A stretch of DNA of 64,000 bases from Antedon mediterranea (Eukaryota; Echinodermata; Crinoidea; Comatulida; Antedonidae). A program made the translations under genes and the position numbers. This document shows, one piece after another, positions 9,401 through 63,658 of this stretch (the stretch's first letter is position 1; each line of letters opens with the position of its first letter). Under the pieces are notes generated by a model, which had not been told where the DNA came from, ran no database searches, and saw only the letters and a list, made by a program, of their open reading frames with translations. The DNA lies in the NCBI RefSeq assembly GCF_964355755.1, contig NC_092670.1, positions 39,109,795-39,173,794 of the forward strand. The letters are read 5' to 3'.

Positions 9401-12400
9401 AATGTGTTCAGCTCGGTCTACACTATCAAACTTTATGTAACAACAAAATGTGATGTGCCCATAAATGGACATGATGATATCACTACCATATTTAAGCACA
9501 TCACTATCATTATTTGGGCATATCACACTTCTTTAAAATTAGTTTGATAGTGTAGACAGAGCTTCATGGAAGAACATTTCAAAACAAGACATTGAATAAT
9601 CTAGTAAGAGATCCATTCTCTACCATCTATACTCGTGTGAGCGACTCATAATGAAGTTCTTATATAACATATTTTCAGTGAGCCACGCCTGAACATTCGT
9701 ATACCGTTTTAATTTCTTCGTTTTTTTTGTTTTCGTTTGTTTTCAGATATTGAACCGCCAACTTCAAATTGTTCTAGCGACCTTAGCTTTACCACAAGTC
9801 CCAACATGGCAGTAGCTGTTAACGTTACGTTACCAACGATTGTTTTTGACGATAACTCAGACGAAGCTGTCAACGTTTTACAGAACATCAACTCTCCATA
9901 TGACTTCCCTATAGGAAGTACACTTATAGTAGTAAACGGCACTGATCCGTACTCTAACACATTTACTTGCGAATACTCGATCAATGTTACAGGTAATAGC
10001 CTTTCATTTACGTAGTTAAACTTGCTTCTTTTACTAGAATTCAATGCAAAAACACCTGCAAGTAATTTGACTTATCGTGAAGCACCATCTAAATTGTTAC
10101 TTGTGATTGGTCAAAGTACTTGCGTTGCGTATACGTCATTGTGCTGTGATTGGTCAAAGTACTTGCGTTGCGTATACGTCATTGTGCTGGTCCTAGTGGA
10201 AATCAAGCTTTACTATGAGACCGGTATGAATGACTAAGAATAAAAATAAAAATGTTTGCGCCTGATAAAAAACGTCCGAATGACTTAAACGTAATGGTAA
10301 ATCTATTTTATTTTTTTATTTTAATAAATAAAAAATATTGAATTCCTAATAAATAATGTATATGTGTCTGTCTGTCTGTCTATTAGATAACGAGGCGCCA
10401 GTCATCCTCAATTGTCCTGGTAACATTACGGAGCCCACCAGCTTTGGAGCATTCTGTGGATATGCAAACTGGACAGAACTTGAATTCTCTGATAATTCGG
10501 AAGATAATCTAACTGTAAATGTAAACGGAGTAGAACCAGACAACAGATATTCCATTGGTTTAACTTTGGTTGAATATATCGTAGAGGATAATTCTGGAAA
10601 TTCTGCATCATGTTCATTTTTCGTAAACATCATTGGTAAAATATTGGACGATTATCTGTCCCGTTGTTCATATAACATGTAGGAAAATAAAAATAGAATT
10701 CATTGGAGATATACAGATTTAACAATTCTATAAACAAACGGATAAGTGCTTCAGTTAAATAAGCGCGTACAAAAAGGCGCTTAAGTAGAATTTTAAGCGC
10801 TAAAGTAAAATAAGCAATATACGGTAATCAAATAATGTTTATTATTTATTACTGCATGTTGGTCTTTTACAGATAATGAACCCCCATTCGCACTGTGCTA
10901 TGATGTCAAGAATTTTACGGTTGACGGGAAACCATTTGGTGTCATCAATACCTACAATATAACAGGATTCGATAACAGTTTAGACAACATTGAATTTCGG
11001 TATGATATTGAAACCGACGCAAACTTTTCAATTGGAGAAACTGAAGTGTTCGTTCAAGTTATCGACTCTTCTAATAACGTGGCCAACTGTACATTTACAG
11101 TTAGAATCATTGGTAAATCAATCTTTATTATGTTTTAAAGTGTGTTTTCCACTATGATTAGGACGTTTTGGATTATCTGTCAAATTACTTTACGTTGAAT
11201 CTTAAGCCTAATCAACTGTACTAGCAGGCCTTTCTAACAAATTTGTTTGGAGAAGTTCTGGTTAAACTACAATCTTTTTTACAGGAGGTTGTCATTTTGC
11301 CCACATTACTGCGAAAACTGTGATTTGTTTGGCTAAGTTCATCAGAAAACTAAGGTTTCACGAAGGTGCATGGCCTAACTAACTTGTTTTCTGTAGTTTT
11401 ACGAAGTTTGTCAACTTGTCCATATACTTGCAAACTTTGGACAAATTTGCTTAACAAACTCGAATTGACACAATGTTTAGCCTTAATTAAGATTAGGTTA
11501 CAGTACAGTTTTTAATATCTGAATTTCCATCTTTACAAATATAAATGTTTTTTAAAAGTTGATATTATTGTTTTGTGAAGGTTTCTATTAGAGAACGCCG
11601 TTTTTATCGAACATTAGGCGTTTGATGTCCCTTTGTGACGTCACTAACGAAATTACGCTACACGGGTTTTTCCTCGTTTGAATTAATCTATGCTGGGGTA
11701 CTTACACACTGTTCCCCAGTTAGCGGTGATGGTGTATCCCAATACTCCGGTTTGGGGGTGCTAGCTTAGTGCTGTTGTCTTTTTTTTCTCTTCCTTTTGT
11801 TTTCCACTCTTTTTATTGTCGAGCGCATAGAGACATCGTTTATTTGCGCTATATAAATCACCCTTCTTATTATAATTATTATTATGTAAATTATAATATA
11901 TTCATGATTAATTTATCATTATAGATGACGAAGATCCAATCGTAAATTGCCCGGCGGAGTTCATAACAACAACAGACGCTGGGTTGTACACTGCATATGT
12001 GAGTTTCACTGCTCCTAATGCCACTGATAATTCTGGTGGTATGTTAAACGTGCAATCTAACTACGAACCAGGCGATTTATTTATGTTTGGATCAACTAAT
12101 GTCAGTTATACATTTCAAGATGAAAGTAATAACACGGCACTGTGCCAGTTTACTGTTATAGTAAATGGTAAGATTGATTAATTCTTATTTATTTCACTTA
12201 AACTTATTAGCATCTTATACAGTAAATATGTCTGGTAAGTAAACAATAAATGCATTGACGTTCACATTGAGCCTTAGTGGTGTGCGTTCTATTCATGTTT
12301 CATAATTTGGAATTTACTGGAATTTTCGGCACATATATGAAACAGGAATTAGATCTATCAAAAATGCATTTTTTTTCTTATTTAAAGCACTTTCTTGACG

Positions 12401-15400
12401 CTACCGGAATGTGCAATTCGGGACACGTCACATGAGAGGATAGCTAAGTCTGAACAAATTACGTTACGATATAAACTGTCGACAACTCCATTTTATGTAT
12501 TTTTCAATTATGATTTAAAAAACATTCTTATTTGTAGATGAAGAGGATCCGACCATAACTTGTCCAGGAAAACAAGTAGTAGATACCACTGTTGATCAAG
12601 CGATTGCCCTTAATGTGACATATGAATCGCCTGTGAGTTTTGATAACTCAGGAGACGTCGAGATTACGTGTTGGCCGGGAAATGGTTCGGACTTCACACT
12701 TGGATTAACTTTAGTTACTTGCACTGCAACCGATCCCTCAAACAACACGGCTGCATGTGACATTGCAATTGAGGTAGTAGGTAAGGCGTTATCATACTTG
12801 TTGTATAAAATAACCATGGATTAAAGAATAGAAGGATATGCATCGACGTGAGATCAAGGGTTCCTTGACTCTCGCCGACAGACCGCGGACCGCCCACAAT
12901 GTTACAGTTTAATTAACCGCATGGTAACAACGAAACGGTCGCGTGCCTAATATATTGTTTACTGCACATGTGCAACGACATTTAACCTTGTTGGCTACTA
13001 CGCTTCTTTCGCGCGTTCTTTGGTGGCATGATGTTTGTAGATGGTCAACTATTGACTATGTTGGTTTCTGCCGCGATTGATCTACGCTAATGATTTTTTT
13101 ATGATGATTAAAGTAGCATTTTATGACCTGTAGTAGCCCTACATCTGAGACAATAACTATTAGTTTGTCTCATTTGTTGTAAAATTACAAAATCAGCAAG
13201 AATGCTAGCCTAGCTAGGCCCAGGCCTTGTACTAACTAGGCTAAACTGGGCTAGTAAACCCTATGATTTGCCGACATTGATACTGCCTAGGTAGGCCTAG
13301 GCTAATCTTAAATACTCACCGTTGTCTTACTTCTTGTGTGAATAATAATAATAGGTAGGCCTACTTCGTTTGTTCGTGATCAAGTTTGCCCTGCGTGTAC
13401 TTTTCAAAACGACCGCTAGGTAACGAATCGCAACTATACATAGCCAGCCAATCCCGGATCAGGGATCGCTGTTTTCATTCAATTAGGCCCGGTGATTGGA
13501 TGTGATGTGGATGACATAACCACTAGCCAATCACCAGGCACTACAGTTTAAATATAATCACATCGATAATTAAGGAGATTTATGAAGAAACCACTGCTTA
13601 GCCATATATTAAAAAACACGATTGTTGTATGTCTGAACACCGGCCACGCTAACAACATACATGGTCAAATGCATAATTTAATATTCTATAGATTAACGCA
13701 ATTTTTAATGACAGAAGATGGCAGGCAAATAATGATAATTCAAATATAAAAATGGCATATTTTATTAATATTACCAACTACCTAAAATTACCAGTCGTAA
13801 GAAAGTGAACTTTTCGTAGTCCGATTGTGATGAAACTAAAACAGAATTATTCAGCAATATATGTTTGTTATCAATTAATCATCGACGCAGACATGTCAAT
13901 AGAACATTCAGACTGCGCATACGATTTCTACATGGTTACGTTTTGGTCTCAAAAAATGTAACAGTTGATTCGCAGCGTTTTACAGAGGGCCGCGGTTAGA
14001 GACACGGAGTTCAATGAACGTGTTTGTTTGATTGGCAGCAGTGCTTTAGTATAGGCAAGCGCGTTGTAAAATCGTTTGATGTCACCGTCGATGCATATCC
14101 TTCTATTCTTTAATCCATGAAATAACCGAAGCGTACATTTTACTAAATTATGTTACAGTTTGCAGGATGCAACATATTTAACCCTCAAAAAACGTTATAA
14201 GAAGAGGAGGGAGGCTACTAATCGGTCTGATACGACTCGCCAGCCTCTTACATCACTAAATTAAAGTGGCACAACGGTAAATTCCGGTGAGCTACTTGAC
14301 ACTTTCTAATTCAGTGAATTTCTATGTATTTATACAGATAATCAACCACCGACCATAGAGTGCAATATAACAGAAACCTACTATACTCCAGCTAACTCGG
14401 CTACAGTTACATTAGTGAATACCATAATTGACTACAGTGACAATGTAGAGATAGCCGATGTTTTCCAGAGTTATCCACCTGGATATGAGTTGGCAATAGG
14501 CGAAACAGTGATAACTAATTACGTCAATGATACTTCTGGAAATTCTGCATCTTGTTCTGTAACTGTAATAGTAATCGGTAAGTAATCTAGGTTCTAATTC
14601 GTAAAGAGAAAGATATCTTGACACACATGGGTCTCATGAACATACTTAAAACAAGTCTTTCGAAAGTATGAGAGTTAGGCCTACTAATACATTAAGAAAT
14701 CGTACTTCAATTTCAAGTAACATTTACTGCTTTCAGGGAATAAATTACAAATCTTCTAAAACAATAGTAATTGAGCAAAATACTTCTGTATACTTACTAT
14801 GCTATTAATATTTAAATTTGCTTAAAGATAATATATTACCAGTAATCACCAACTGCCCGTCAAATTTCAACATGTCTACGGATGTTGGAAGCAACAGTGC
14901 GACGATCAGCTGGCAAATGCCAAACGCGACCGATAATGACGGATTACCGCCCTCAGTTTCCGTTAACTTGGTAAACGGAGGCTCTTACGAAATAGGAGAG
15001 TACGAGGTGGTATATAACTTTACAGATTCTTCAAACAATACGGCCATTTGTACCTTTACATTCAGCGTTTACGGTTAGTACAAGAATGATTTTTGGAACA
15101 GAGGTAAATCAGAATGAGCGTAGTTGTTAAATCTAGTGTCGATTAACCTGCATGACTTTTTGTAACATTATTTACTAAAATTGACTTTTATTTTTTGTAG
15201 AACTAGACTATGTATTAGGAAAGTTTTTGTTACTATTAATAATAATAATAATATTTAACAAAATAATTATATTTAAAAAAAATGATATAATATATAAACC
15301 CAAAGCCAGCTGTGAATAACTGCCACCACACCGACTAGTTCCGTGATAACATAATGATTGTGGGAACTCATAACGATGAAGATGAAGACGACGTATTTCC

Positions 15401-18400
15401 TACTTACAAACCCCCTTATTTAAAGTGCTGCGTTTTCTTCTTGTTATATTTTCACATCATTGAATATATTTAGATGATGAAGCGCCGACAACGGATGATT
15501 GTCCGTCAGATATTATTGACAACAATACACCAGGAGCAGACGAGAACGTGGCCGTGACGTGGCCAGCTTTGAGCTGGCAAGATAACTCAAATGCATTCAT
15601 TGATGTAGATCAATCACACACACCTCCTGACGTATTTCCAATTGGAACAAACGTAGTCGTGTATACAGCCACTGACATATATGGAAATGTTGGGTATTGC
15701 CGTTTCAACGTTACCATTTTAGGTAAATCGAAGTACCATAGTTTAGGCAATGCTTACTGCTATTTGAAATTTGTCGATATTTGATATAATTTGTTTATTA
15801 AACTGATAAGCTGATAAGAACTACAAAAATGGAAAAAATAGCCAACCAATCAAAACTAACTAAAAAAGTAGATATATTTTTAGGCAGCTTGAATTGAATT
15901 TATTTACCACCGAAACTGTTAATGTAACTAATAATATAGTGTCACTATTGATTGGGTTGTCAATATTATAATAGTTTAATATGGAATAAATCTAGCCTTA
16001 CTCATCATCATGCATCCTTCAGTCAAAATTGACTATGGAGAGAATTTCATCAATTACCCAGCAGTGAGTCTGTGTGATCTGATCTAGATTTTCTTTTCAG
16101 ATACCTCTCTTCATTTTCCATACGATATCTCTCTTCGCTGTGTGCAAGTCCTGCCTGAAGATATAGGCATGATTTTCGGTCATCAGCTTTTTTTCTCAGT
16201 GTTAACATCGATGTCCATTGCCTTCAAGTCTCTTTTACATGCATCTTTGAAACCCAAATATGGACGTCCTATATAGATCTGGCCTTACTAATGTGCCACT
16301 ATTTGTATATATTTAGATAACGAGGATCCTGTCGTTTCATACTGCCCAGGCGATATAACGAATACAACTGAATTTTACGGTAATGTAAACCCACAAGTTT
16401 ATTGGGACGAACCGACTGCAACTGACAATTCTGGAAATGTATCAGTGACATCAAGTAACAGACCCGGTGATACCTTTCAGATTGGAGATAGTGGAACAGT
16501 GGTTACTTACACGTTTACAGATGTTTATGATAATGCAGCAATGTGCCAATTCACAGTAACCATTGCAGGTAAACTATCAATATATAACAACAACCGCATT
16601 AGTAACTTTAAAGATGTATTGTCCCAAAAAACATAAAAAATAAAGATTATAAAATAAGAATGTGCATAGATTAATTTTGTACTTTTATTAAAGTTAATCA
16701 CTTTCGTACAAAAAACCGGAAAAATCAATGTTTTCACCTATAAAATGACAAAATAAATGGTTTAATTCAACCAAAAACCCATTGGCTGGTAACTAATTTG
16801 CTTAAAATTACAGTTTTTTAGGTAATTGCGTTTTTTTCGATACAATTTTTGGTCAAAGTGAATAACTATTAGGTGACATTAAAATGGCATATTCAACAAA
16901 AACATTTTTAGAATTATTTTTTAAAGGACAATACATCTTTAATAGTATAACGCTAATTTTAGTATCCAGACATTGTGAGGTGATGACGTAAATATCAGGG
17001 TTATAATGAAACAAATGAGATGATGACAAACATTTTGTTTTCAAACCCATAGTTTGTCAAGGACAGTTTTTAGTGTAATTACGTACTCATCGTACACCAC
17101 TCTATGAGTGGTGCAAGAGGCTAGTGGGCCGGTCGTGGCCCTCTATTAGCCTCCATCGTCTTCTGAAATTGTCTTTTAAATAGTATGGTTGTGTCAACTT
17201 CTACTGTACTGGCAGGGAGAGCTTTCCATGAATTTACGACTTGTTGGGTAAAAAAATGCCTACGGCAATTTAATCGAGCATTATTATTTTTCAATTTCTG
17301 TTTATGACCCCTAGTGGCGGTATATTCAGACTTTTGAAAAGTAAATCACTATCAATAGCCACTTTGTTAGAAAGAAAATTATATGTTTGAATCATGTCGT
17401 CTTTCTTCTAACGTTGTTAAATTAAAAACTTACTATCTGCATAGGGCATGTTATGCAAACTAGGTGGTAGCCTAGTTGCTCTCCTCTGAACTTTTTCTAA
17501 TAAAAGAATGTATTTCTTTAGTTAATGAGACTATGCCTGGACTGCAAATTTCAGATACGGCCTGACTAATCCAGTAAAAAGCGATTTAATCATATCAACT
17601 GATTTATATTTATTGGATCTTTTAATAGTACCTAACACTCGATTTGCTGTTTTGGCTGCTGCTCATTGTTTACTAGTCTTGAGAGATTTATCAATAATCA
17701 CTCGCAAGTCTTTTTGTTCTGTTACTTCATCTAGGATAATCCCATCAAGTTCATAAGAATGATTCGGATTATTAAATCCTAGGTGCATGACATTGCATTT
17801 ACTAATATTAAAGCTCATTAGGTATTCACGACAACAAAGTGATAACTTGTCAATATCATTTTGTAGTACTCCAGAATCAACCTCGGAATGCACACTTCCA
17901 AACAATTTAATAATGTCATCAGCAAATTTCACAATGAATAATTAATGGAAAAATCTATGTCATCAATAAAAATAAGAAAAAGGACTGGTCCGAGGACCGA
18001 ACCCTGAGGCACACCACTATGAACGGGGGCCCACTCAGATTTCCTACCATTCACAACAACCCTTTGAGATCTATCACTAAGCCATTTTTTATCCACATGC
18101 AAACAGGACCTTCAATACTATGAGCCAAACCTTTATTCAACAACCTTACATAAAAAAACTTCGAAACGCTGCAGAAGACAAGTTTTCAAAATTTGCAATA
18201 CATTAGGATTCTACGATAATTGTAATGTTATTATCTCTTTTTCAGATCTTATACATCCAGTTATTTACAATATATCTGGCAATTTAACTTACTTTACTCT
18301 ACCCGGAGTCAACTACGCGATAGCCATGTGGGAAGATCCAATGGCCATGGACAATTCTGAAATGGTCATTCTCGCAACAACCATTCCATCTGGATCTCAA

Positions 18401-21400
18401 TTTGAAATAGGAACTACTGAGGTATGCGTAGTGGCGCTTGATCCGTCAGATAATGGAGATAGAGCTTGTTTTTATGTGACAGTAATAGGTAAGATATATA
18501 CAGAAAAAACATTTGTAAAACATAACAGAATAATCTATGCAATGTGATAACTTCTGTTCTAAGCCAACTTTTTTTCGAAATCAATAGTTGAATAGTTTGT
18601 AGAATTGTTTATAAGCATCCGCAAACATTAACACAACTTGCTAACATACTCAACAGTGTGCAAACCATGAGGCTGGCAACATTATATGCTAATGTTGACA
18701 AGTAGACAAAGTTAGTTAACACAGTGGAAGTATAAGTTTGGTAGTTGTTGTAGTGTAGACAAGGTTGTATATAAACACTGACTACAAAATATAAACAACA
18801 CCTATGAGCAAATAAATTATGGATTTTTATACATTTAATAATAATAATAAACAATATTTATATAGCGCCTAATGGATCACTGACCCCTCTATGTGCTTTA
18901 CATTAGACCCTAACTAATGGTAATAAACTATCGGGATGGAAACGATCAATAATGTGAAAGAATGTAACTATGCTTATTAACTAAGTTAAAACTATCCTCC
19001 GCCGGACACCATCCCGGTATTTCTGAGTCAAGGTTTCGGGGCCAGAATTAAGAATAGAGAGTAAATGAAGCATGCACTAACTTAACTAGGGTATCCTTAC
19101 ATATAGTAAGTTATGAAAGCTCTGTCTACACTATCAAACTTTATGTGACATAAATGTTATATAACATTTACTGTGAATCTATGTTTACACCAACAATATC
19201 TTGTTTCACCGTAGACAACGAAGCCCCTGTTTTTGTGAGCTACCCAATGGAAGACATTGTACAATTCACAGACGTCGGCGTACAGACAATAGTGTTATGG
19301 AATCTTCCAATTGTTACCGATAATTCCGGCTCTTTTTATATTACCAATGACATAAATGCGGGAGATCTATTTGACATAGGGGAGTATACTGTATACTATA
19401 ACGCCACCGATCCGTATGGAAACACGGCTTTCATCTCTTTCAGAGTCATCATTTTAGGTAAATATGTATTTATCGACGATGTCACAATCACTGTGTTCAA
19501 ACCACGATAGGACCATTATTCATTCATTCATTTTTTTTTATTTTGGATAGAATACAAATCATACAAAAAAAAAAAAAAGAGAAACAATTTCACCAGGAAA
19601 TTAAGAAGATAATTAATTAGCCACAAAACCAACCTACAATATTTTAAAATACCAATTTGCACCAACGCTGATGTAGGTTGGATTGTGGAAGTACGTTAAC
19701 TATGGTTTGAATCTAATGAAGACTAATACAACTGTCATGAATTATGTTCTTAAAACTATGTATTGAGTTCCTCCAATATTCATAGAATGATTATGGAACG
19801 TTATTCGTTACATGCTTGCGCTAATTATATTAACCTCTGTTTAAACTGTAGGTGTAAATCTACGAATGGTAGTCTCTAGCCCTATGGCAGGTTGTTGTGA
19901 AGTACTGTACACCTAAAATCTCCTTTCTCATTCTATATACAGAAACCGACAATGATGCTCCAAATATCACGTGTCCTGAATCAGTAGAAGTTGAATCTGA
20001 TGCTACTAGACCGTATGCTACAAATGTCGTCTGGTCGGATATTTACGCGGAAGATTTAAATGGAATTTTTAACATTACAAGTAGCGTTCAAAACGGTTCC
20101 ACTTTTAACTTAGGTGAAACAAACGTCACGTACTGGGCATCGGACACGTCTGGAAATATCGCCGAGTGCACGTTTACTGTAACTGTAATAGGTGATAATT
20201 TTACTGTATTCCCTGTGTGTTTCTAGTGTATAATGTGGCCGTATTTACCAATAACACTTAAGTGAAAAAGTAAGTATTAGAGTTAGGCATACAGCAGGTA
20301 CATTTGATTAAAACTATACTGACTGCATTTATTCATTCCTGTTGTAGACATGGAAGATCCTGTAGTGACGAACTGCCCAGAGAATATCACAGACACAACA
20401 GACTCAGGATCACCAAATGGTATTGTGTCCATACCGTCACCGACCATATCAGACAACTCGGGTTCATACTCAGTAGAACAAACCCCACCTGGAATGTCGT
20501 TTGGAATAGGAATAACATGGGTTACACTGACTGTGTCAGACGAGGCTGGAAATACGGCAGAATGTTCCTTTACAGTGGAAATTATCGGTAAATATATTAT
20601 AATACAACATTGTTTCATATCGAATTTTGATTGTGGAGACAACAGAACCAAAACCAAACAAAATATATGTTATAACTAAAAAGCTAACGTTATATAATTT
20701 TTTTTTAAAATTACAGATGATGAAGACCCAACAGTCGACTTCTGTCCAACAAACATATTAGTTGATAACGACCCTCAATTAGCAACAGCAGTATTGAACT
20801 GGACGGAACCAATAGCATCAGACAATGATAGTCCACTAACATTGACAACATCGCATACACCAAATGTTGATCAGTTTTACGTGGGAGATACTTTGGTGAA
20901 CTACACATGGACTGATCCATCGGAAAACACAGCGACTTGTCTATTTACTGTTACAGTACGAGGTATATTGCTTTAAAAACGTGTTAGTAGAGTCAAAGAA
21001 CTTATAACACAAGAATCTCCTGTTCGTCCGAAGCGCGTAACAATTTCGAAAGGCATTGTGGGATAGAATAGAGCTATGGGTGGCGCCATTGTGAGCCATG
21101 GAGTAGGGCGCCCGCATCAAATTAGAAAGTCAAAATCATAGAGGGGATCTGCTAATGCTCTAGGGAGGATAGAGTAATTGACTGAGGAGTAGGGCGCCCG
21201 CATCAAATTAGAAAGTCAAAATCATAGAGGGGATCCGCTAATACTCTAGGGGGGTAGAGTAATTGACTTCCTAGTTTGGAGGGGGCGCTGCTCCATGCTG
21301 TGAAATGGCGTCGCCCAGTTTGACCTTTTAACCCTGTACTTCCCATACTGTGTTTTGAATGCAAATTGAAGAACAGGAGATTATTGTGTTATAAGTTCTT

Positions 21401-52800: not shown

Positions 52801-55800
52801 GAAAAAACTGTAATTTAAAGCAGACAAATGGTTTTTGGTAAAAATTAACCGTTTCTTTTAACTTTTTAAATAATAATTATTGTTGTTTTTTTTTCTATTT
52901 TTTATTCATTAAAACTGCAAAATGGGCTATTAAAAGTCTGATTTTATAAATCATTATTTTTTATGATTTTGGGGACAATACATTTCCACACACTTTGTTT
53001 TTATAGCATATGTATCGTATAAGAAAACAGTGACATCAAAGTCCGTACACTGGAGTTCACCACCTGTGACTGCTATTACAGATGGCGACGATGCTGGACT
53101 CTGTTTCAAATCAGGTGAGACCTCTTCAAGCGATACATTTTTAAATACATCTTTTACTATGGCGCGCCGTAAAAGAAAACATCGCGAGTGTTCCGACACC
53201 GAAAACACCGAATTTGTCGAAGTGCAGCTTATTCGACAACAACATCCTTTAGAAAAATACACAAAGTTCGATATTCAGCTTATAATCAGGTGTGTTAATG
53301 GGACAAAACAACCTTTCCGACGGCGAAAAACTCTCGAGTTCGATATGGGACTTATTCGTCAATGCAGTAGGCATATTCTTCTCAAGCTCTGTCTACACTA
53401 TCACATTTTATGTGAAACAAAGTTTGATGTGCTTAAATATAGTGATGACATCATCATGTCCATGGGTACATCACACTTTTTTGTCACATAGATAGTGTGA
53501 TAGTGTATACAGAGCTTCAGATTCATGATGCTTTTACAGGTTAAAAGAGATAAAGAAGAGCAGGGATCGTCGGAATCTGTCCTGGGAAGGTTATACTAAA
53601 GATATGTTAGTAAGATAATAAGCCTACACTATTGTTTGTCAGGGCAATATCCTTCTGACATTTAGTATAAACTATATTTTTCATTTCATTTATTTATTTC
53701 ATTTTACAAATATATAAATATAAAGTGGAGGAGCCTAAAAGAAAGCAAAGCTTGTGGTGAATAGGCTCCTCAAAACAAAACAAATAAAATATAAATAATA
53801 TAACACAATTAGAAACTCCAAAAAAACAACAATTAAACTAATATCTTTTCTCATATTGACGTGTGATGTGGTCAAATATCATAGTGATATGACATCATCA
53901 TGTCCATATATGGGCAAATCACATTTGTTTGTCACATAAAGTTTGATAGTGTCGACAGAGCTTAACACTGCAAGTGATAATTATGTATGACTTTTTTTTT
54001 AGCGAATTCAGTGCAAGAATGGATCACAATCGACCTCGATAAGACGTACAAGGTATCCAGTGTAGTAGTAATAAACGTTGCTGCTGAGGAAGGTAGGTTT
54101 ACACGTGTTGACCAATGACAAGCTACAGTTCGAATAATTCATGGCTTGTGATTGGTCAACTACTTACGTTGCGTTACGTCCTTGAGTTGCGTCTCTAGTG
54201 GGAACCAATGAAAGTGAATCAATCAGATTACATGCTTCAAAAAATGTTATACTGTCCCCTCAATTTTTAGTCACGTGGACGCGACTCTATAGTTCACTAT
54301 GCCGGTCGGTCTGTCTGTCGGTCTGTCTGTCGGTCCGGTATCACTATGCGTTTTATTGCTTTTCTGTACTTTTTTAACTGTTTTGATGTCAACGATTTTC
54401 TCGTATTTAACATAGGTCAAAAACCAAATAACATTTTAAATTGAAACTTTGCAAAAGTTTAATTTATATCAGGCGCTAACTTTCTGTTGAAAAAAAATGT
54501 GTGTTTTACACAAAGTTACGCGCGCACGCGCATTTAAAATTTCAACATGCGCAAAATTAATTTTTAATAAACTTTCTACGCGTTTCTTGTCATTTTGAGC
54601 ATGTCAAAAATTCCCATACGCGCGCTAATTTTTACGCACGAGGTGCGCACAGCGTTAAAAAGATACTTTTTTCGCGTGATTTATGTTTTTGCAGCCTTTC
54701 ATAATAATTTTACCAACTTTTAAACAATTTCGACTTAAAATTACGTCATACGAGCACGTCGAATTGGATAATTTGCGCACGTTTTTGATGAAAAAGTTCA
54801 AAAATTCGTCAAAATTATGCCTTTTTAGTCGCGTGGACGCGACTCTATAGTTCACTATGTCGGTCAGTATGTCTGTCGGTCTGTCTGTCGGTCCGGTATC
54901 ACTATTCATTGTAGCACGCGACTTAATGGCTGTTGGCCTTGTTTTTGTTAGAGTAGGTTATTTCACTCTTAAAACGATTTACCTGATAAACCCATAATTT
55001 GAAGTAAATGGTCAACCGGAAGCAAACGAAGGTTGGAGGTCAATGCGTTTTTGGTTAAATGTTCACAGCGAACGCGAATAAATTAAAATTAAATCATGGA
55101 GTACAAATTCTTTACTCCATGATTAAATTAAATATAACTGATTTTACTCATCTTATTTCTTATATTTTAGGAGACAATACACATCTTCTCATCTGAAATT
55201 CCTTCTTCATATAACTAAAGAAAAACACTTTTCATTGTTTAGGTTCAGATGAGCACTTGAGAATGGTAGACGCGGAGGTACATGTCAGCTCCTCTAGTAG
55301 CATACTGTTTGAGAATGACGTAAGACGATGTGGAACTCCTGCCAATACAACACAAGTCTCCACTAGTCAAATAATTGAGTTCGAATGCTCACCAACAATA
55401 CGTGGACAATACGTATCAGTTTTGTATTCTTCCAAGTCGGAAACACTGAACATTTGTGAAGTTAGAGTTTACGACGAAGAAGAAATAGGAATAGGTATTA
55501 TTTACCTTGTTTTTTTTTAAATATCGTACGAATATTGTAGTGCATGTTATCTTAAAATAAAAAATCCTAATTATCTAATTTTTAAACTTTTGCATTCCTC
55601 TTTTTTTATAACTTATTTTGTCATGGTGAAAAGGGAGGATATTTTATATTCCTCTTCTGAGTTTATAGCCTCTATACCCGAACACGAACAAAATAGACAT
55701 TTACGATTTTAATGACTGTATATAGTCTTTTATCACCATGCAAATATGGTTTTATATTGAAATCAATCTTCTTAGGCCTATTATGTAAATATGCATATAT

Positions 55801-58358
55801 TTTCAACACTGAAAGAATTTTAGTACTATACAATAGAGAGGCAACAAATATGCATATAAATATTTAATTGTAATAAATGTACATATATATATATATACAT
55901 ATAAAACATAGAATTATAATAAAAGTGGGAAGATCCCGCAAAATAAAAAATAATAAAAAACCTCATAAATAATTTCTAGCTCGTAATGAAAATAGTCGTA
56001 ATCATGGTATTCAATAAGTACATATATTTATTTGATAGGCGAGTGCAGTGATCCGCCATTAAGAATTAACTATTATGGGGTCGTTGGACACACCGCAGAC
56101 GGAATAATATGCCAACATTGGAACTCGATGACTCCGCATACCGATCTTATAATCGTACCTAGTTCTTATTTAATACATAACTTATGCAGGAACCCGGACT
56201 TTGATTCTTTTGGCCCGTGGTGCTACACAATGGATCCGTCGGTGCGATTTGGTTACTGCAACGTCCCGGATATGATTGAACCGTGTCCGCAAGGTAGGGA
56301 ATAATGCTTGGTTCCCACTAGAGACACAAGACAAGAACGTAGCGCAACGTAAGTGAGTTGACCAATCACAAGCGATGGATTATTCGAACTGTCGCTTGTC
56401 ATTAGTTAACTCGCTTGCGTTGCGTCTACGTCCTTGCGTTGCGTCTCTAGTTGGAACCACGCTTTACAGTACAGACAAAGTTGCCTCGTACCTTGTGTAA
56501 ATGCGCGGTAATGCACTCGAGTCAACAGCTGCGCATGCTCAGTGTCCTTCCATTGTCATACAAGTTGTTAAAAGTATGTTTACAAACGAGCAAGCATTTT
56601 CAAATTTGCTTTAAACTAATGTAATTTTTAGGCCTAATTTATATTTTTTTTTAATTGCCTTTTAGATCCATTTACTGATAACCTCAATCCAATTGGTTGT
56701 TGGTCAGTGGATAATCTATGTGTGCTAGGAGCGACTGAAGAGGAGTTATTCCCAATAGCTATCAAAGATCTGGACTTCAACAATAGGCCTAATATTACAG
56801 ATTGCTTGGCCAAAATTGAACCACCCCAAAGGTTTGTGATGAAAACGAGATACTCGTATTTCACCAACCCGGTTAGTGAACTGTCTATTGCGCTGATGAT
56901 CAACGCCCAAAACATCTCCTCTGGAATTATCTTAACCTTTGGAAACATTAATACTGACATTCTTAAGGTAAACCAGAAGTATTATAATGATGAGATGTAT
57001 AGTTCAGAGGTCGAAGTTTACTATGGAAACAACCTATTGACACATGCGCATATGTTGTTACCGAATGTTTGGACACTTCTTGCCGTGACGTTTGATGGGC
57101 CAAAACAAACCATTAAACTGTGGCGAAACGGAGAGATAATGGCACTTGCTTACGTTGCTAAACCGTTCATTTCTTTCAACTCGCCTTCGGAAGATGTTGA
57201 AGTTACGGTAGGAAGTGTCTCTGGAAATGTCAGAGCATACGTTGCCTTGTTAGATGTCTATAACAGAGTTTTAACGGAAGCAGAATTAAAAGCAATACGG
57301 GATAAAAGGCTAAAGCGTAAGTAGTAGATTAAGCGTGGTTCCCACTAGCGACGTAACGTAACGCAATCTATGCAACGTACGCATGCGTGATATCAAACCT
57401 GCAATGTTTGCAGCACTATTGCGTCGTCGGTTCACACTTGTGATTACGCAATACACGTCGATACGCCGCTGCGTTGCGTTCTAGTGGGAACCACGCTTAA
57501 GTAGCACGGTATTCAGTTCACAATGAAAATAAGAAAGTATAATTTAATGTAGAATACTTGCCAATTTCACGTAAATATACCGAATGTACAGTGACTTTCT
57601 TGTATGCATAGAAACGTTGCGGAGCCTATTATAGTATACACTGGAAACATTTAGCAATAAAGGTTTTTCAAAGGTTTCTAGTGTACTGTGTAGACCAGTT
57701 GACAAAACTATTGTACGGTACAAATTAGGCCATGCACCTTTTTGACAAACCAGTTTGCCGATTTGTGTGAACTCGGTGAAATTCTGCAGGTGGACAGAAT
57801 GACAGCCTCCAGTAATATAACTTAAATTGTATTGCTAGTGTGGACTTTTGTCAGTTTTTATGTTGTTGCTATTTTCCATACGCAGCATCCAACCGTGAGT
57901 AACCCGCCAATTACAGGAGGGATAAACTATTTAATAATGTATATCCCACTTAAAACTTAGTCTAATTTGAGACTTAGTGAGTGGATTTGAAAGAGTCGTG
58001 AGTTACAACTCCCGAATGGAGACTAATGTTTCTAATCTAAAATTCTAATCAAATTTAATTTGTTTTCTATTGCATTTTAGTCGACAAAGGAATAAGGCAA
58101 GGTGTGTTCTCAAAAAAGGAATTTTCTCTGCGTCCTCTGGGCTCAGTTGTAGTACGAGTGATCTGGTCACAAGCTATATGCTACCAAGTATGTATCATTA
58201 ATCCACTGTGTACAGCGTTTGGTTATAGTAAAGTAACCAGTGTTTGTGAACACTTTACTGACTTCGAGGTCATTCGAGAAACGAGTTCAACTGTTTACTA
58301 CACCAAGATTGTGAACGAAGTTAAGAAGTGTGATTCTGAGAGTACAATTGAACCTTGA
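49832..58358 (+). CDS. Secreted FTP (fucolectin)-kringle-LamG-PAN protein, complete seven-exon gene
   Basis: Exons 49832-49889, 53007-53114, 54003-54092, 55243-55494, 56039-56293, 56666-57316 and 58081-58358 join in frame (1692 bases, 563 residues). Residues 1-19 are a signal peptide; about 20-169 form a fucolectin/tachylectin-4/pentraxin-1 (FTP, F5/8C-like) domain with WITIDLDKTYKVSSVVV; 170-254 are a kringle with CRNPDFDSFGPWCYT; 255-471 are a LamG/pentraxin-like sandwich; 472-563 are a PAN/apple domain. All introns are phase 1, typical of shuffled extracellular modules. FTP domains of fish and crab lectins bind fucose; kringle and PAN modules bind proteins. A humoral lectin or adhesion role is inference. 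Confidence 0.88.
49911..50037. mobile_element. MITE, AGCTCTGTCTACAC family, copy G (right end lost)
   Basis: AAGCTCTGTCCACACTATCA at left. The inner part ATATGACATCATCATGTCCA is present; the right terminal repeat is missing. Confidence 0.68.
50038..51537 (+). other. Signal-peptide intron, first part
   Basis: AT-rich. 50880-51080 resembles 3855-4110 (dispersed repeat). A TTATTATTATT run lies near 50571. No exon was recognised. Confidence 0.35.
51538..51783. mobile_element. MITE, AGCTCTGTCTACAC family, copy H (dimer-like)
   Basis: Starts GATGTCTACACTATCAAACT and ends AGTTTGATAGTGTAGACAGA. In the middle a second set of family motifs occurs (GACTATCAAACTTTATGTGA, AATGTGATGTGCCCATATAT), so two copies appear fused. 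Confidence 0.7.
51784..52675 (+). other. Signal-peptide intron, middle part
   Basis: AT-rich, nothing recognised. Confidence 0.3.
52676..52983. mobile_element. piggyBac-like MITE, copy 2 (reverse)
   Basis: Left TTTAAAGATATATTTTCTCC, right GGGGACAATACAT. Inside: GAATATGCCATTTTAATTTC and GACCAAAAACTAATCG, the reverse of copy 1. The right TTAA is lost. It ends 23 bases before the first FTP exon. Confidence 0.68.
53007..53114 (+). CDS. FTP domain exon 1
   Basis: Acceptor TTTTTATAG, donor G|GTGAGA, phase 1-1, 36 codons: YKKTVTSKSVHWSSPPVTAI then TDGDDAGLCF, the usual opening of F5/8C and FTP domains (S-S-x..A-x-D-G-D). Confidence 0.82.
53384..53517. mobile_element. MITE, AGCTCTGTCTACAC family, copy I
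   Basis: AAGCTCTGTCTACACTATCA..GATAGTGTATACAGAGCTT, 134 bases. Confidence 0.75.
53690..53830. repeat. Dispersed repeat fragment
   Basis: TATAAAGTGGAGGAGCCTAA..GAATAGGCTCCTCAAAACAA contains the inverted pair GAGGAGCCTA / TAGGCTCCTC. Looks like the end of a retroelement; family unknown. Confidence 0.4.
53858..53964. mobile_element. MITE, AGCTCTGTCTACAC family, copy J (left end lost)
   Basis: GTGATGTGGTCAAATATCAT then TTTGATAGTGTCGACAGAGC. The left terminal repeat is missing. Confidence 0.65.
54003..54092 (+). CDS. FTP domain exon 2
   Basis: Phase 1-1, 30 codons: NSVQEWITIDLDKTYKVSSV then VVINVAAEEG, the W-x-x-x-DL core strand of the fold. Confidence 0.85.
54103..54208. mobile_element. MITE, GTTCCCACTAG family, copy f (left end lost)
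   Basis: GTGTTGACCAATGACAAGCT at left corresponds to the inside of copy e; right end GCGTCTCTAGTGGGAACCA. Confidence 0.65.
54268..54910 (+). repeat. Direct-repeat pair with GTCTGTCGGTCC motif
   Basis: TTTTTAGTCACGTGGACGCG..GACTCTATAGTTCACTATGC..GTCTGTCTGTCGGTCCGGTA at 54267-54345 recurs at 54822-54904, about 554 bases on. The segment between is rich in GCGCGC and CGCG. Possibly two ends of one element. Confidence 0.6.
55243..55494 (+). CDS. FTP domain exon 3
   Basis: Phase 1-1, 84 codons: HLRMVDAEVHV, RRCGTPAN, IEFECSPTIRGQYVSVLY, TLNICEVRVYDEEE. The cysteine spacing and the closing L-x-I-C-E-V-x-V-Y are FTP hallmarks. Confidence 0.88.
55495..56038 (+). other. Intron between FTP and kringle exons
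   Basis: AT-rich with a TATATATATATA run near 55886-55897. No exon or repeat family was recognised. Confidence 0.35.
56039..56293 (+). CDS. Kringle domain exon
   Basis: Phase 1-1, 85 codons: YYGVVGHTADGIICQHWNS, HNLCRNPDFDSFGPWCYTMD, FGYCNVPDMIEPC. The kringle order Y-G..T-x-x-G-x-x-CQ-W..CRNPD..PWCYT..YC..C is complete. Confidence 0.92.
56305..56465. mobile_element. MITE, GTTCCCACTAG family, copy g
   Basis: Left TGCTTGGTTCCCACTAGAGA, right TCTCTAGTTGGAACCACGCT. It starts 11 bases after the kringle exon. Confidence 0.8.
56666..57316 (+). CDS. LamG/pentraxin-like domain exon
   Basis: Phase 1 in and out, 651 bases, donor AAGC|GTAAGT. GCWSVDNLCVLGATEEE leads in, then SELSIALMINAQNISSGII, NVWTLLAVTFDGPKQTIKLW, VTVGSVSGNVRAYVALLDVY and LTEAELKAIRD, the concanavalin-like sandwich order. 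Confidence 0.85.
57331..57499. mobile_element. MITE, GTTCCCACTAG family, copy h
   Basis: Left AAGCGTGGTTCCCACTAGCG, right TTCTAGTGGGAACCACGCTT: nearly perfect terminal repeats. It starts 14 bases after the LamG exon. Confidence 0.85.
57640..58015. repeat. Two dispersed repeat fragments
   Basis: 57640-57850 carries AATTAGGCCATGCACCTTTTT, the reverse of 11355-11380. 57880-58015 carries GCAGCATCCAACCGTGAGTA..AAAGAGTCGTGAGTTACAAC, shared with 48440-48570. Confidence 0.45.
58081..58358 (+). CDS. PAN/apple domain exon and C-terminus
   Basis: Acceptor GCATTTTAG, phase 1, 278 bases, TGA at 58356-58358. Cysteines in AICYQVCIINPLCTAFGYSK, then SVCEHFTDFEVI and the end KKCDSESTIEP fit a PAN domain. 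Confidence 0.85.
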
Positions 58359-58400: not shown

Positions 58401-58406
58401 AATAAA
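58401..58406 (+). terminator. Polyadenylation signal of the FTP-kringle gene
   Basis: AATAAA 43 bases after the stop codon. A second AATAAA at 58612-58617 could serve a longer 3' end. Confidence 0.5.
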
Positions 58407-58775: not shown

Positions 58776-59034
58776 AGATGTATTGTCCCCAAAAACATGA
58801 AAAATAAAAAAATAGGCCATTTTGCAGTTTTAATAAAGAAAAAACAAAAACAAATTATTATTTCACTTAAAAAAAGACAAAAGAAACGTTTAGTTTTAAC
58901 CAAAAACCATTGTCTGACAGACAATTTAAGTATTTAAAATTTTTAGATCCAGTTTTTGGTCAAACTATTATGTGACATTAAAATGGCATATTAAAAAAAA
59001 TCTTTATAAAAAGTGTTTGGGGGACAATATATCT
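58776..59034. mobile_element. piggyBac-like MITE, copy 3
   Basis: TTAA at 58772-58775 and 59035-59038 flank AGATGTATTGTCCCC..GGGGGACAATATATCT. Same inner motifs as copy 1 (TTTTTGGTCAAACTATTATG, AAAATGGCATATT). Confidence 0.85.
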
Positions 59035-59038
59035 TTAA

Positions 59039-59717
59039 GTAATAAATATCTATATGTTATATATATATCTCATGTTTGGCCCTATACATTATTTATAAAT
59101 TATATCAAAAAAAATGTTAGTTAACTATATTGCAGTATTTTATAACACAGCATAACAAAATTTAGGAAAAAAAATACATTTTAACATTAAATTATCACAG
59201 TAATTTTGTAAATATAAAATTAATAAAAGATTGCACAACTTGTAAAACAGTGAAGCAAAATATGTCATGAGTTTTTTTTATAAATTTCATTAAAAATTGT
59301 CCTCTACAAAATTTTCCATTTTCCACCAAAAGACTTTTTCTGAAAATCCGAGAGATTGCAAGATACAGTAGCTGATATTTTTTTTAATATAACTGAACCT
59401 AACCGTAAATAATCTGACAAAACAAAGGGCTCCAGTTTTACAAGCTAAAGTGTATAGCATTAAGCCAAAGAACTGGCTTGCAGAAAAACTTGACATAACC
59501 AGATAACCCATTTGATCCATGTCCATGCTTATATAGCGCCGCCTATAATGTGCTTTCTAAAATGCACATTCTCTCGGATTTTTTGAGAAAAACTACCTAA
59601 AAAAAGGGGCTTATTTCATGCTTATTTAACTTCATAGCTGTATAAAAATAACAATGGGTTTGGATCGTTTATAATTACCATAATTATAATAATAACAATA
59701 AATGTAAATTTGAGTTT
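59039..59717. other. Spacer between two converging genes
   Basis: AT-rich. It probably includes the 3' untranslated region of the ABHD gene. No coding sequence was recognised. Confidence 0.35.
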
Positions 59718-59905
59718 TTAAGTTGGTATATTAAATGCGAATTCATCTGTGTGTTTAAAAGCCGCATCCACAACATCTGCGAATATTGAATGCCATAAAG
59801 ACTTGCCTCGTGGCCAGATGTTTTTTAAAAATCCTAGATGTCCTCCGTGTGATGTGACGATGAGGGCGACATTCTCTTGGGTACATGACTCATCAATCGG
59901 AAGGG
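59718..59905 (-). CDS. ABHD3: ABHD last exon with catalytic histidine
   Basis: 188 bases. Acceptor TTGCAG, ALPIDESCTQENVALIVTSH, GGHLGFLKNIWPRGKSLWH, ending FAFNIPT and TAA at 59718-59720. Confidence 0.9.
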
Positions 59906-62900
59906 CTGCAATTAAATATAACATCAACGGTTTTATGTCGTAATCAATGTTTTATTTCGGTGGTGTGTTGATGGTGTGTAAAATAAAGTCTAAAACTATA
60001 CTATGTTCACTTAGGAAAATAAAAGCAAAAATTATACACGTACTATCAACTGACAACTTTTAAGAAGTTTCCTAAAACGTGATGATTTCTAAAGGCCAAG
60101 ACCGAATGGACAACTTTCAAAAATAGGTGGTGGAGCATCCTCATGCATACATTTTTACTATTTTAATACACAACAAACAGCAATTACCAATTAAAATTAC
60201 AGTATGGATAAACTTACTATAACATAAACTAAGTCTTTGGTTTGGGGAGTTGTTAGAAACATATGAAGAGCAACAACCCTGGCACTAGGTCAGGATTGAA
60301 CCCTGGACCTTGGAATTGGAAAGCAAGCATGTTAAACACAAAGCTACAGCTCCACTACAATAATAAATAAAAATTGAAAAACAACTTTACCTCTGACAGG
60401 AGAAAATGGATCATTTTCGGCATTCAAACAAACGGTTGGAATTTTAATAGAATTAATTTTCTTGTGTAAACACGCATCTTCGTAGTATTCATTTACGTCA
60501 GCATAACCAAATACTTTGGATGTAAAACTAGCGTCAAATTGACGGATGCTAGTTGCCTTTTAGATGGAAAAAGATTTTATTGTATATTGTTTTCTAGTAT
60601 GTGAAAAGGAATGAATTGAAATATTTTATTTATACTGGCCGACCTCTTCAGTCAAAGAAGACTTGTCTCCCAGAGGGCCCAGTTATATGATCACCTACTC
60701 ATCTTGAAAGATGTACTAGGTTCTTTAAAGTGGACACGAGCTTGATGTGTACACTGGACCTATGGTTTATTGTCCTTATTCGAGAAGACTTGTTCTACCA
60801 CCAAACCCATGGAGTGAGTGAGCTTCGAACACTTGCCGATTATGGCTACGTAATTACGGTCCCACCACTCGCTTACTCACGCTCCCGTAGCATGTGCAAA
60901 AATGTTGAAAATAATTCTTTACAGTTTCTTTATGTGTGCGATGATGCATATGGCTCACCTATTCATCTGCAGTAAACCCAGGATTTTTATTTTTCTAACT
61001 AACATTTGACCCCATTGTCTGGCAATCCAATTTAACTTAACTAAATTGTTTTGATATCTTTATTGACATAAATACAGTACACTTACTTTTAAAGCATCTT
61101 CTAAATCACTTGGCTTCAAACAATCTTTAAATTTACTAACATGCCTAAAAATGAATTAACATATAAGCAAATTAAAAGATATATTGTCCCCCTTAAAAAA
61201 ATTGTTGTTGTTGTTGAATATGCCATTTTAATGTCACATAATAGCTATTCATTTTGACCAAAATTTGGATCGAAAAAAAAATGTATTCACCTGAAAAAAC
61301 TATAATTTAAAGCCATAAATAGTCAAATTGGTTGCCAGGCAATGGGTTTTTGGTTGAATTTAACTGTTTATTTATAATTTTTTAAATGAAAACATTATTT
61401 TCGTTTGTTTCGCCTTTTTTTGATGGAAGTATTTAACTTTATAAAACTGTTAAATGGCCTATTCAAATTCTTTTTTTATTAATCTTAATTTTTCTTGACA
61501 TCTTTAACATTTTCCCTTTAGAAAGCATGTGGCCATCACCCGCACCCCCAATCCAGTTTGTTAGTGTGTTAATATAAATTAAATCTAACCTTAGTAAGAC
61601 GCTACGTAAGTTTAACGCCAGTGCATAGTTGAGTGTCCACCGGTTCACTGGTTTCTCTAATTCTTTAGTTGATTCAAACATATTCCAAGCTGTTGATACA
61701 GTAAATGCTGCCACCAACGGCGTATCAGTCCCAACTTTCGCCAAATAATTGAACAGAATAATACTGCAAAAATATAAAGAAATGTCAATTACAGTCTATT
61801 GATGGAAAAAAAAAATTGATTTTTGATAATAATGATGATAAATTAAATATTGTCTTTTGTGAATGGAAATGATTAAAAAAATATGGTCGGGTAATCAAGA
61901 TATCACCACAGACTTTACATTACTTATTTCATTTCATTACTTTCGTCAGAAAAGAACAAATGCATAACAAAAGAAAAGAGTTCAAAATCCTAAAGACTGA
62001 TTAACAAAAAGTGGTTTACCAAAATGAAAATTTAAAAAAGTTCTATAATTAAAATACAGGAGGCCTAAAAGAAAGTAGTGACAATCATGTGAAGTGATAA
62101 ACTTAATTTGATGTCCTATTTTCTGCATTACAATTTAAGAGAGGGGGCCTGGACCGGCTGACCTCTTCCCTCCACCCTACCTGCCCCTTAATACTACCGA
62201 TATTTTGAAATTTCATTTGCTACATACCCTCCCAATGACGCCCCAGCTGCCATCAATGTTGCTTCAGGGTAAAGGTCATGTACATGTTCTATTACAAGCT
62301 TTAGGTCATCGGTATTTGCTGCACAATACGTACGAGGTGTCTGAAAAAGAAACCAAATTAGTGTTTGCAAATGTTTTATATTAATTGCAAATATAGGTTA
62401 AGAATGTTTGTGTTAACAGCTTTGGACTTGAATGTTCTAACTATCGAACTAGTTTGACAAAAAAGTGTGATGTGCTCAAATATGGTAGTGATATGACATT
62501 ATCAATCTCCATATATGGGCACATCACATTTTATTGTCACAAAAAGTTTGATAGTGAACAGAGCTTAAAAATAGATTAAAATAAAACCAATTAAAATACC
62601 TTCAACTCAGCTCCTCCTAAACCTCTGTTGTTAAAAACGACTGCTCTGTAACCAAGGCTGGTAACAGAGTCTACCATTTGAAGGACATATCCTGCTTCAC
62701 TACAACCTAAACAAAAAAGATGAAATATCACAAGGTCAAAGGCCACCAAATGTTATGAAAATGTAAATAAACAAAGAAACTTCTACTTCCTAATAAGGTC
62801 ACAGGGTGTATTCACCATTAACATACAAACATGGTAGTGAAGTCCAATCCACAATTACGATTCTCCAACTATCTATTCTTAAATTACTAAACAAAAATAT

Positions 62901-63658
62901 TTATTGATAAAAAATGTCAAGAAACAAGAAATTGAACTTTGTACCGGTCAATCCAGGAAGTATGATCACAGTTGGTCTCACTTGATTATTATACGTTTTA
63001 CTGGCTTCTTCATTATCCTCCCAATGTAGGCTGATTTCTCCTCCATCTTTGGTTAAAATCTTTTCTCTGGAAGAAAAAAACAACTTTATTGAAGTTACAA
63101 ATGAATATTCATATTTATATAATTAACATTGTCAAAGATATCTTTATTAGTTCTGTAAAAAATGTATTGAAAAAAAACACAATATTTGATGATACCGAGA
63201 CCCAAAAAAAAAAAAAAGTTAAACCACACCACCAACCATTGCCTCACCAACTCCCTGCCACATAGCTTATTGGCCTGCTTCTCTTGCTAAACAATTTAAG
63301 CTCTGTCTACACTATCAAACTTTATGTGAAAAAAAAAAAATGTGATGTGCGCATACAGTATATGGACATGATGATGTCATATCACTACCATATTTGAACT
63401 TATCACTACCATATTTGAACATATCACTTCCATATTTGGGCACATCACACTTTTTTATGTCAAACTAGTTTGATAGTGTAGACAGAGCTGTAGTTACCTT
63501 CTATATTTATGTTGTGGCGGCGATTGTATCAATGTTGGTACTACAGTTTGTAAGTGAGCTCCTACACACCAAAATGTAGGCCAATACATCGTCTTTAAAC
63601 TGCGACAGTGGTTCAACAAAAACTTCTTTAACTTCGGACCACTATAAACGCCAGGTTT
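59718..63658 (-). CDS. ABHD3: ABHD1/ABHD3-type alpha/beta hydrolase, 5'-partial
   Basis: Eight exons join in frame to 362 residues plus stop; human ABHD3 has about 409, so roughly the first 45-50 residues, with the usual membrane anchor, lie on an exon right of the window. The start resembles the family (YWPTFWCVGAHLQTVVPTLI), followed by ILPGLTGCSEAGYV, AVVFNNRGLGG, the nucleophile elbow GASLGG (Ser about 165), Asp in NAENDPFSP (about 294) and His in SHGGHLGF (about 323). ABHD3 cleaves medium-chain and oxidised phosphatidylcholines at a membrane; ABHD1 is its sister. The gene may predate their split, so the symbol marks the ABHD1/3 clade. The triad is intact, so activity is expected. Confidence 0.9.
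60268..60358 (-). repeat. tRNA-like SINE head
   Basis: On the minus strand AGTGGAGCTGTAGCTTTGTG then, further on, GGTCCAGGGTTCAATCCTGA: the B box GGTTCAATCC is perfect. Shared with 48580-48650. Confidence 0.55.
60391..60556 (-). CDS. ABHD3: ABHD exon with catalytic aspartate
   Basis: 166 bases. ATSIRQFDASFTSKVFGYAD, VNEYYEDA, IPTVCLNAENDPFSPVR. Donor AGAG|GTAAAG. Confidence 0.88.
60615..60895 (-). mobile_element. tRNA-derived SINE, copy 2
   Basis: Same body as 21988-22292: TGAAATATTTTATTTATACT, GACCTCTTCAGTCAAAGA, AGATGTACTAGGTTCTTTAA, TGGCTACGTAATTACGGT. The tRNA-like head is worn. Confidence 0.7.
61087..61144 (-). CDS. ABHD3: ABHD small exon
   Basis: 58 bases, 19 codons plus one base: HVSKFKDCLKPSDLEDALK. 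Acceptor TTTTTAG, donor AAA|GTAAGT in phase 0. It fits exactly between its neighbours. Confidence 0.82.
61176..61480. mobile_element. piggyBac-like MITE, copy 4 (right end lost)
   Basis: TTAA at 61172-61175, then AAGATATATTGTCCCC. Inside: TTGAATATGCCATTTTAATG and TTTTGACCAAAATTTGGATC in reverse order to copy 1. It lies in an ABHD intron. Confidence 0.7.
61590..61763 (-). CDS. ABHD3: ABHD exon (NYLAKVG)
   Basis: 174 bases. GIILFNYLAKVGTDTPLVAA, then FTVSTAWNMFESTKELEKPV. Donor AG|GTTAGA. Confidence 0.88.
61764..62227 (-). other. ABHD intron, nothing recognised
   Basis: AT-rich intron with a CCTCCACCCTACC stretch near 62170. No repeat family was recognised. Confidence 0.3.
62228..62340 (-). 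CDS. ABHD3: ABHD exon with nucleophile serine
   Basis: 113 bases. TPRTYCAANTDDLKLVIEHV, then LYPEATLMAAGASLGG with the G-x-S-x-G elbow. Donor GG|GTATGT in phase 2. Confidence 0.9.
62434..62567. mobile_element. MITE, AGCTCTGTCTACAC family, copy K
   Basis: Left end worn (TTCTAACTATCGAACTAGTT), right end GTTTGATAGTGAACAGAGCT. Inner GTGATGTGCTCAAATATGGT. Confidence 0.72.
62600..62706 (-). CDS. ABHD3: ABHD exon (NNRG)
   Basis: 107 bases. GCSEAGYVLQMVDSVTSLGY, RAVVFNNRGLGGAELK, donor AAG|GTATTT in phase 0. NNRG is a family signature. Confidence 0.88.
62945..63066 (-). CDS. ABHD3: ABHD exon (oxyanion region)
   Basis: 122 bases. REKILTKDGGEISLHWEDNE, then RPTVIILPGLT with donor ACCG|GTACAA. Confidence 0.88.
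63298..63489. mobile_element. MITE, AGCTCTGTCTACAC family, copy L (expanded middle)
   Basis: AAGCTCTGTCTACACTATCA..TTTGATAGTGTAGACAGAGC, 192 bases. The inner unit ATATCACTACCATATTTGAA is repeated three times, which explains the extra length. Confidence 0.82.
63498..63658 (-). CDS. ABHD3: ABHD exon (first in window)
   Basis: Acceptor CAACAG in phase 0, then KPGVYSGPKLKKFLLNHCRS and TMYWPTFWCVGAHLQTVVPT. Ends HKYRR split codon, AG|GTAACT, phase 2. 161 bases. Confidence 0.87.

What the first reader, a model, noticed from the sequence alone, without database searches (positions are those of the whole stretch)
9993..63497. Mobile elements of several unrelated families sit just downstream of 5' splice sites
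Bases between exon end and element: copy L 8, copy g 11, copy h 14, copy G 21, SINE 23, copies a and F 25, D about 25-30, E 26, the 409-base element 31, K 32, the 1305-base element 34, piggyBac-like copy 1 43, copies b and c about 60. About 13 of some 30 elements lie within 45 bases of a donor, in genes on both strands and from at least five families. Introns are mostly 150-3000 bases long, so random insertion would rarely do this. Preference of the integrase machinery for open, transcribed or R-loop DNA at donors, or selection that spares this part of the intron, are possible reasons.
Basis: partly seen in the sequence, partly recalled or inferred. Interest (0 to 1): 0.8.

Follow-up and report, generated by a model that had tools for sequence, protein, structure and literature searches.

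The report
Small transposons crowd 5' splice sites
In this genome one family of tiny mobile DNA elements sits just behind the start of introns more often than random landing would give, the opposite of what is reported for mammals, but the cause is not settled and the other families in the window do not clearly share the habit.

Summary
Introns are short (median 295 bp), so about 40% of the count is chance.

Outside the window I tested 23 stretches of 10 kb chosen only for HYR exons. Family A (about 160 bp, terminal inverted repeats, a MITE) repeats the pattern: 6 of 12 copies against 1.5 expected, P 0.001-0.002. All other families do not: 4 of 18 against 3.9. Limit: 5 of the 6 come from HYR genes within 65 kb of the window, one of them the same gene; more distant loci hold 4 copies, 1 near. 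Acceptor side: at expectation.

Genome-wide, GTAAGT lies 6-36 bases before an A end 308 times, its reverse complement 133 times; GTAAGT 242 times at 46-76 and 162 at 256-286 bases. This is steeper than uniform insertion allows (P 0.008; 0.05-0.07 under harsher nulls).

So: a probable, moderate donor-side bias of one MITE family, 1.5- to 4-fold. "Several unrelated families" is not supported outside the window. Mechanism open: insertion preference behind exons is my favourite; slower loss beside exons the main rival.

The parts
26881..27016 (.). Family A MITE copy, 30 bases after HYR exon end
38152..38316 (.). Family A MITE copy, 25 bases after an exon ending 38127
40346..40486 (.). Family A MITE copy, 23 bases after exon ending about 40323
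49909..50036 (.). Family A MITE copy, 20 bases after first exon ending about 49889
62433..62570 (.). Family A MITE copy, 29 bases after minus-strand exon ending 62600
63295..63492 (.). Family A MITE copy, 7 bases after minus-strand exon ending 63499
5488..5660 (.). Family A copy far from donor (170)
9406..9567 (.). Family A copy far from donor (1118)
19115..19162 (.). Family A fragment, 52 bases before an acceptor
51533..51785 (.). Family A, one or two copies in the middle of a long first intron
53382..53519 (.). Family A copy in intron, about 268 from donor (exon read by hand)
53861..53966 (.). Family A copy, about 35 before acceptor at 54000 (exon read by hand)
54104..54212 (.). Family D/E MITE-like copy, 11 bases after exon
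56302..56469 (.). Family D/E copy, 8 bases after exon
57330..57503 (.). Family D/E copy, 13 bases after exon
33981..34187 (.). Family D/E copy, 57 bases after HYR exon
36490..36703 (.). Family D/E copy, 61 bases after exon
37429..37594 (.). Family D/E copy, about 90 bases after exon
16609..16944 (.). Family B element, 40 bases after HYR exon
12815..14119 (.). 1305-base element with about 44-base terminal inverted repeats, 34 bases after HYR exon
20994..21402 (.). 409-base element with terminal inverted repeats, 31 bases after HYR exon
21984..22260 (.).

Best explanation
Family A is a short non-autonomous DNA transposon family (MITE) with, by estimate, about 7,000 copies with preserved ends. 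Its copies are found within about 45 bases downstream of 5' splice sites more often than uniform insertion into introns predicts. Shown: the bias in the window and in neighbouring HYR genes, a genome-wide decline with distance from GTAAGT, sites in many unrelated genes, independent insertions, no clear orientation bias, no matching gradient in TA target sites. Inferred: that it comes mainly from where the element inserts, DNA just downstream of exons in genes active in the germ line (nucleosome-poor or unwound during transcription), with insertions beside acceptors held at random level by damage to the branch point and pyrimidine tract. For the other families, short introns plus a striking window are enough.
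For: Loci outside the window, family A: 6 of 12 within 45 bases, expected 1.5, P 0.001-0.002; without L005, which is the same gene, 5 of 11 against 1.5, P 0.009; with window 12 of 24 against 3.4. Genome-wide GTAAGT before an A end: 308 at 6-36 bases, 242 at 46-76, 162 at 256-286; reverse complement 133 at 6-36; uniform insertion with the measured intron lengths rejected, P 0.008. Sampled sites look like exons: open frame median 183 against 84 nt; 13 of 40 with Pfam families such as Ras, myosin tail, sulfate transporter, RPN6 (20 of the 40 were scanned). Fourteen near-donor copies have unrelated flanks. TA density along introns nearly flat, 0.128, 0.126, 0.113, 0.105.
Against: Five of the six near-donor A copies outside the window lie in HYR genes within 65 kb of it; loci elsewhere give 1 of 4 against 0.5, which says nothing. 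The genome-wide gradient test weakens to P 0.05-0.07 if few introns are longer than 270 bases. Genome-wide acceptor-side estimates are not lower than donor-side within error: 713 +- 303 against 955 +- 163 sites. Near-donor copies look slightly older (84.1% v 87.4% identity, P 0.07), which fits slower loss better than insertion. No chromatin, transcription or population data.
Confidence: 0.4

Rival explanations
1. Edge shielding: insertion is uniform, but elements next to an exon decay more slowly because deletions that run from the element into the donor or exon are removed by selection; acceptor-side insertions are lost to splicing damage.
For: Near-donor A copies are somewhat more diverged from the consensus (84.1%, n=14, v 87.4%, n=16, copies of 100 bp or more; P 0.07). 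Introns are short, so deletions often reach an edge.
Against: Should act on all families; non-A families in the loci show no excess within 45 bases (4 v 3.9). Should also raise the 46-90 zone before acceptors, which is at expectation (12 v 12.0). Can hardly give 4-fold.
Confidence: 0.25
2. Ordinary: uniform insertion into short introns, plus a window (and a neighbouring gene cluster) that happens to look striking.
For: Uniform insertion already gives 5.3 of 28 in the window and 5.4 of 30 elsewhere; fits all non-A families outside the window (4 of 18, expected 3.9); A copies in distant loci are too few to contradict it (1 of 4).
Against: Family A in loci chosen without regard to elements: 6 of 12 against 1.5; genome-wide decline with distance.
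Confidence: 0.24
3. Target sequence: the region after donors simply offers more of the preferred target.
For: AT content falls from 76% at 6-25 bases to 70% at 76-120 after donors.
Against: TA and TWA density change by under 25%; acceptor ends are more AT-rich and have equal TA, yet carry no excess.
Confidence: 0.08
4. Introner-like elements: the copies made the introns they lie in.
For: Short inverted-repeat elements very near donors.
Against: Introns between HYR exons at the same phase-1 position exist with and without an element (27 with, 211 without, of 238; positions the same by the way they were selected); acceptors of the six near-donor A copies lie 148-944 bases away in the loci.
Confidence: 0.02

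Closest known systems
Underrepresentation zones of TEs near exons in mammalian introns (Zhang, Romanish and Mager 2011, PMC3088655; passages seen)
   Same: Distance of intronic TEs from splice sites, read as selection on splicing.
   Different: In the table shown, SINE, LINE, LTR and DNA elements are all depleted near exons (DNA elements within 50-100 bp); family A is enriched on the donor side.
MITEs (non-autonomous TIR DNA transposons)
   Same: About 160 bp, terminal inverted repeats, thousands of copies, too short for a transposase gene.
   Different: I did not find a donor-side bias described in searches of the held library; this does not show that none is in print.
Introners (Gozashti et al. 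2022, PMC9860276; passages seen)
   Same: Short elements in genes, often with TIRs, with a reported bias to nucleosome linker DNA.
   Different: Introners create introns and carry or recruit splice sites; A sits inside introns of a kind that exists without it.

Membership tests
MITE (family A) | Terminal inverted repeats | tested here: met
   AAGCTCTGTCTACACTATCAAACT at one end and its reverse complement (shorter, with differences in single copies) at the other in the consensus of alignment A1.
MITE (family A) | Short and non-coding | tested here: met
   28 of 32 copies are 100-200 bp, the longest 253: too short for a transposase gene.
MITE (family A) | High copy number | tested here: met
   7,699 exact 21-mers of the internal unit, which can occur more than once per copy; about 13,800 ends implied by chance hits.
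MITE (family A) | Target site duplication | tested here: inconclusive
   TA on both sides in several copies (L005, L006, window 38152), not in others.
MITE (family A) | Autonomous partner with transposase | not tested
   No search made; superfamily not assigned.
Introner | Element creates the intron and its splice sites | tested here: not met
   HYR introns of the same phase exist without element (211 of 238); the six near-donor A copies in the loci lie 7-43 bases behind the donor and 148-944 before the acceptor. No comparison with a relative was possible.

The most novel reading that the evidence does not exclude
The transposase that moves family A is steered to DNA at nascent 5' splice sites, for example by contact with the transcription or U1 snRNP machinery or by R-loops there, giving a DNA transposon that aims for the safest part of introns.
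Probability: 0.08. Interest if true: 0.85.

Novelty: new variant of a known kind. Interest (0 to 1): 0.48.

Why it matters
In mammals TEs are scarce near exons and this is read as selection against harm to splicing. A family that is enriched right behind donors would show either a targeting rule for DNA transposons tied to gene structure, or that exon edges preserve old insertions. Both can be tested with one annotated genome and a few resequenced individuals.

Tried and rejected
GTAAGT/ACTTAC asymmetry alone as proof of targeting: rejected, since any intronic insertion gives it; only the distance gradient and the intron permutation bear on it. Families D/E and B genome-wide: no further distance bins could be run (12 of 12 searches used); about 20 of the 96 D/E control hits are the element's own inverted sequence by my reading of the list, so that control is too high; 3 of the 62 B hits show one identical flank and so are copies of one longer repeat. 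Tandem exon duplication carrying the same insertions: rejected, flanks of 14 near-donor copies are unrelated. Age test only suggestive. First runs used padded library edges for window elements 33965, 54098 and 60268; corrected by hand, which lowered the window count from 15 to 13. Rows dropped: of 50 elements in the 23 loci, 20 were not in an intron bounded by two HYR exons; of 21 A copies 9 were dropped, two of them 35 and 41 bases from a donor (L006, L008), four at 215-2662, three with no donor in the piece. Library families K (low complexity) and I (chiefly the tandem array in L019) were left out from then on. The loci use looser splice-site calls than the 238 introns. Organism not identified. 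Literature searches; papers seen as passages only: PMC3088655, PMC9860276, PMC7789003.

Full report
What is there. The window lies in a 354-Mb genome of 18 contigs, not named. It holds part of a gene with 46 recognised HYR exons (plus strand), a cytochrome P450-like gene (minus), a gene that looks like F5/8C-kringle-pentraxin (plus) and a minus-strand gene at the end; these last three are named or called by me from the translations and sequence, not by a family search. Self-comparison gives repeat families A, B, C, D/E, F and two single large elements; merged, 31 library elements lie in the window, 12 of them A.

Check of the observation. I re-measured exon ends and element starts. Three further library elements lie outside introns and were not counted. 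The chance level is not low: in 264 kb (window and 20 loci) I found 326 HYR exons and 238 introns bounded by two clean splice sites, with median 295 bases. Placing each element uniformly in its own intron, from base 6 to 20 before the acceptor, gives 5.3 of 28; P about 0.0002. Eighteen of the 28 rest on hand-read exon ends outside the HYR-HYR introns.

Test outside the window. I fetched 20 stretches of 10 kb, and later 3 more, chosen only from the list of HYR matches. One, L005, is the stretch directly upstream of the window, by its place the window's own gene. In them 30 of 50 library elements lie in introns bounded by two HYR exons. Ten of the 30 are within 45 bases of the donor, expected 5.4, P 0.024. 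Family A gives 6 of 12 against 1.5 (P 0.001, 0.002); the rest 4 of 18 against 3.9. Within 45 bases of the acceptor: 4 against 3.5. Over window and loci: A 12 of 24 against 3.4; non-A 11 of 34 against 7.4 (P 0.08); acceptor side 7 against 7.0. By place, the A result is local: cluster C1:39.047-39.087 4 of 7 against 1.0 (P 0.008), L005 1 of 1, all other loci 1 of 4 against 0.5 (P 0.44); without L005, 5 of 11 against 1.5, P 0.009. Family F has 5 of 7 at 46-90 bases (expected 2.0), too few to use.

Genome-wide. Because A has nearly the same repeat at both ends, one pattern covers both orientations. GTAAGT followed after 0-30 bases by GCTCTGTCTACAC occurs 308 times; the reverse complement of GTAAGT in the same place 133 times; GTAAGT at gaps of 40-70 242 times and at 250-280 162 times. 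Within 0-30 neither shows a clear peak in the first 100 listed of each. GTAAGT makes up 55 of 300 HYR donors and occurs by chance 0.00031 times per base, so the excess means about 955 +- 163 donors with an A end 6-36 bases behind them. A uniform model with the measured survival of intron lengths (1, 0.915, 0.42) fits badly (P 0.008); with 0.30 and 0.20 in the last bin P is 0.047 and 0.075; if introns elsewhere are longer than HYR introns the misfit grows (0.95 and 0.6: P 6e-5). The acceptor count, TTTCAG 227 against CTGAAA 174 (six of those listed for the 227 are copies of one repeat), gives 713 +- 303 acceptors, so genome-wide I cannot claim that acceptors differ from donors; the direct intron sample suggests that they do.

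Are the sites real donors? For 40 of the hits (the first 40 in genome order outside the window) I read 200 bases upstream. Median open frame 183 nt, against 84 for 163 non-donor GTAAGT and 198 for HYR donors; G at -1 in 35% against 10%. The coding score separates them less well: above 5 in 23% of hits, 14% of non-donors, 94% of HYR donors (the score was trained on HYR exons). Twenty of the 40 frames, chosen for length and likeness to known proteins, were scanned: 13 match Pfam families in ordinary genes (myosin tail and Fz below their cut-offs; Ras, FAD_binding_2, Sulfate_transp, RPN6_N, Oxysterol_BP, EGF twice, VWD, C8, DLEC1 Ig, DUF3337 above), one more weakly (DX), six none. This fits the 57% true donors implied by 308 against 133.

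Mechanism. TA and TWA density hardly change along introns and are as high at acceptors. Near-donor copies have no clear orientation bias (6 same, 8 opposite), share no flanks and are slightly more diverged (P 0.07). The bias is strong in A and absent in the rest outside the window, which speaks for a property of the element's insertion rather than of introns in general. The higher divergence speaks mildly for slower loss next to exons. I hold insertion preference at 0.4, shielding at 0.25 and chance at 0.24.

Known work. Mammalian introns show the opposite, a deficit near exons ascribed to purifying selection (PMC3088655, passages). Introner families favour nucleosome linkers (PMC9860276, passages), a possible parallel. 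I found no report of enrichment behind donors in searches of the held library, of which I saw listings and the passages named; this is no proof of absence in print.

Noticed in passing
47364-47577: A 55-base tandem array (3.9 copies) lies about 34 bases behind the donor at about 47611 of the minus-strand P450-like gene (exon end read by hand).
   Followed up: no
35078-35525: A 47-base minisatellite in two blocks, with open frames over long stretches, inside an intron of the HYR gene.
   Followed up: no
63887-64000: Tandem array of AAGTCGCCCCATCGCA-type units at the window end.
   Followed up: no
L019:3281-8267: Four copies of a window repeat (54264-54925 type) at regular spacing of about 1.52 kb in a HYR region.
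   Followed up: no
G000 C1, C3, C4, C10: HYR exons are greatly multiplied: 1,417 candidates of which 150 were scored, in several gene clusters, some with regular spacing on C3 and C4.
   Followed up: partly
L002, L004, L005, L009, window 60275: Family F starts 46-90 bases after the donor in 5 of 7 intronic copies (expected 2.0, P 0.014, one of many tests).
   Followed up: no
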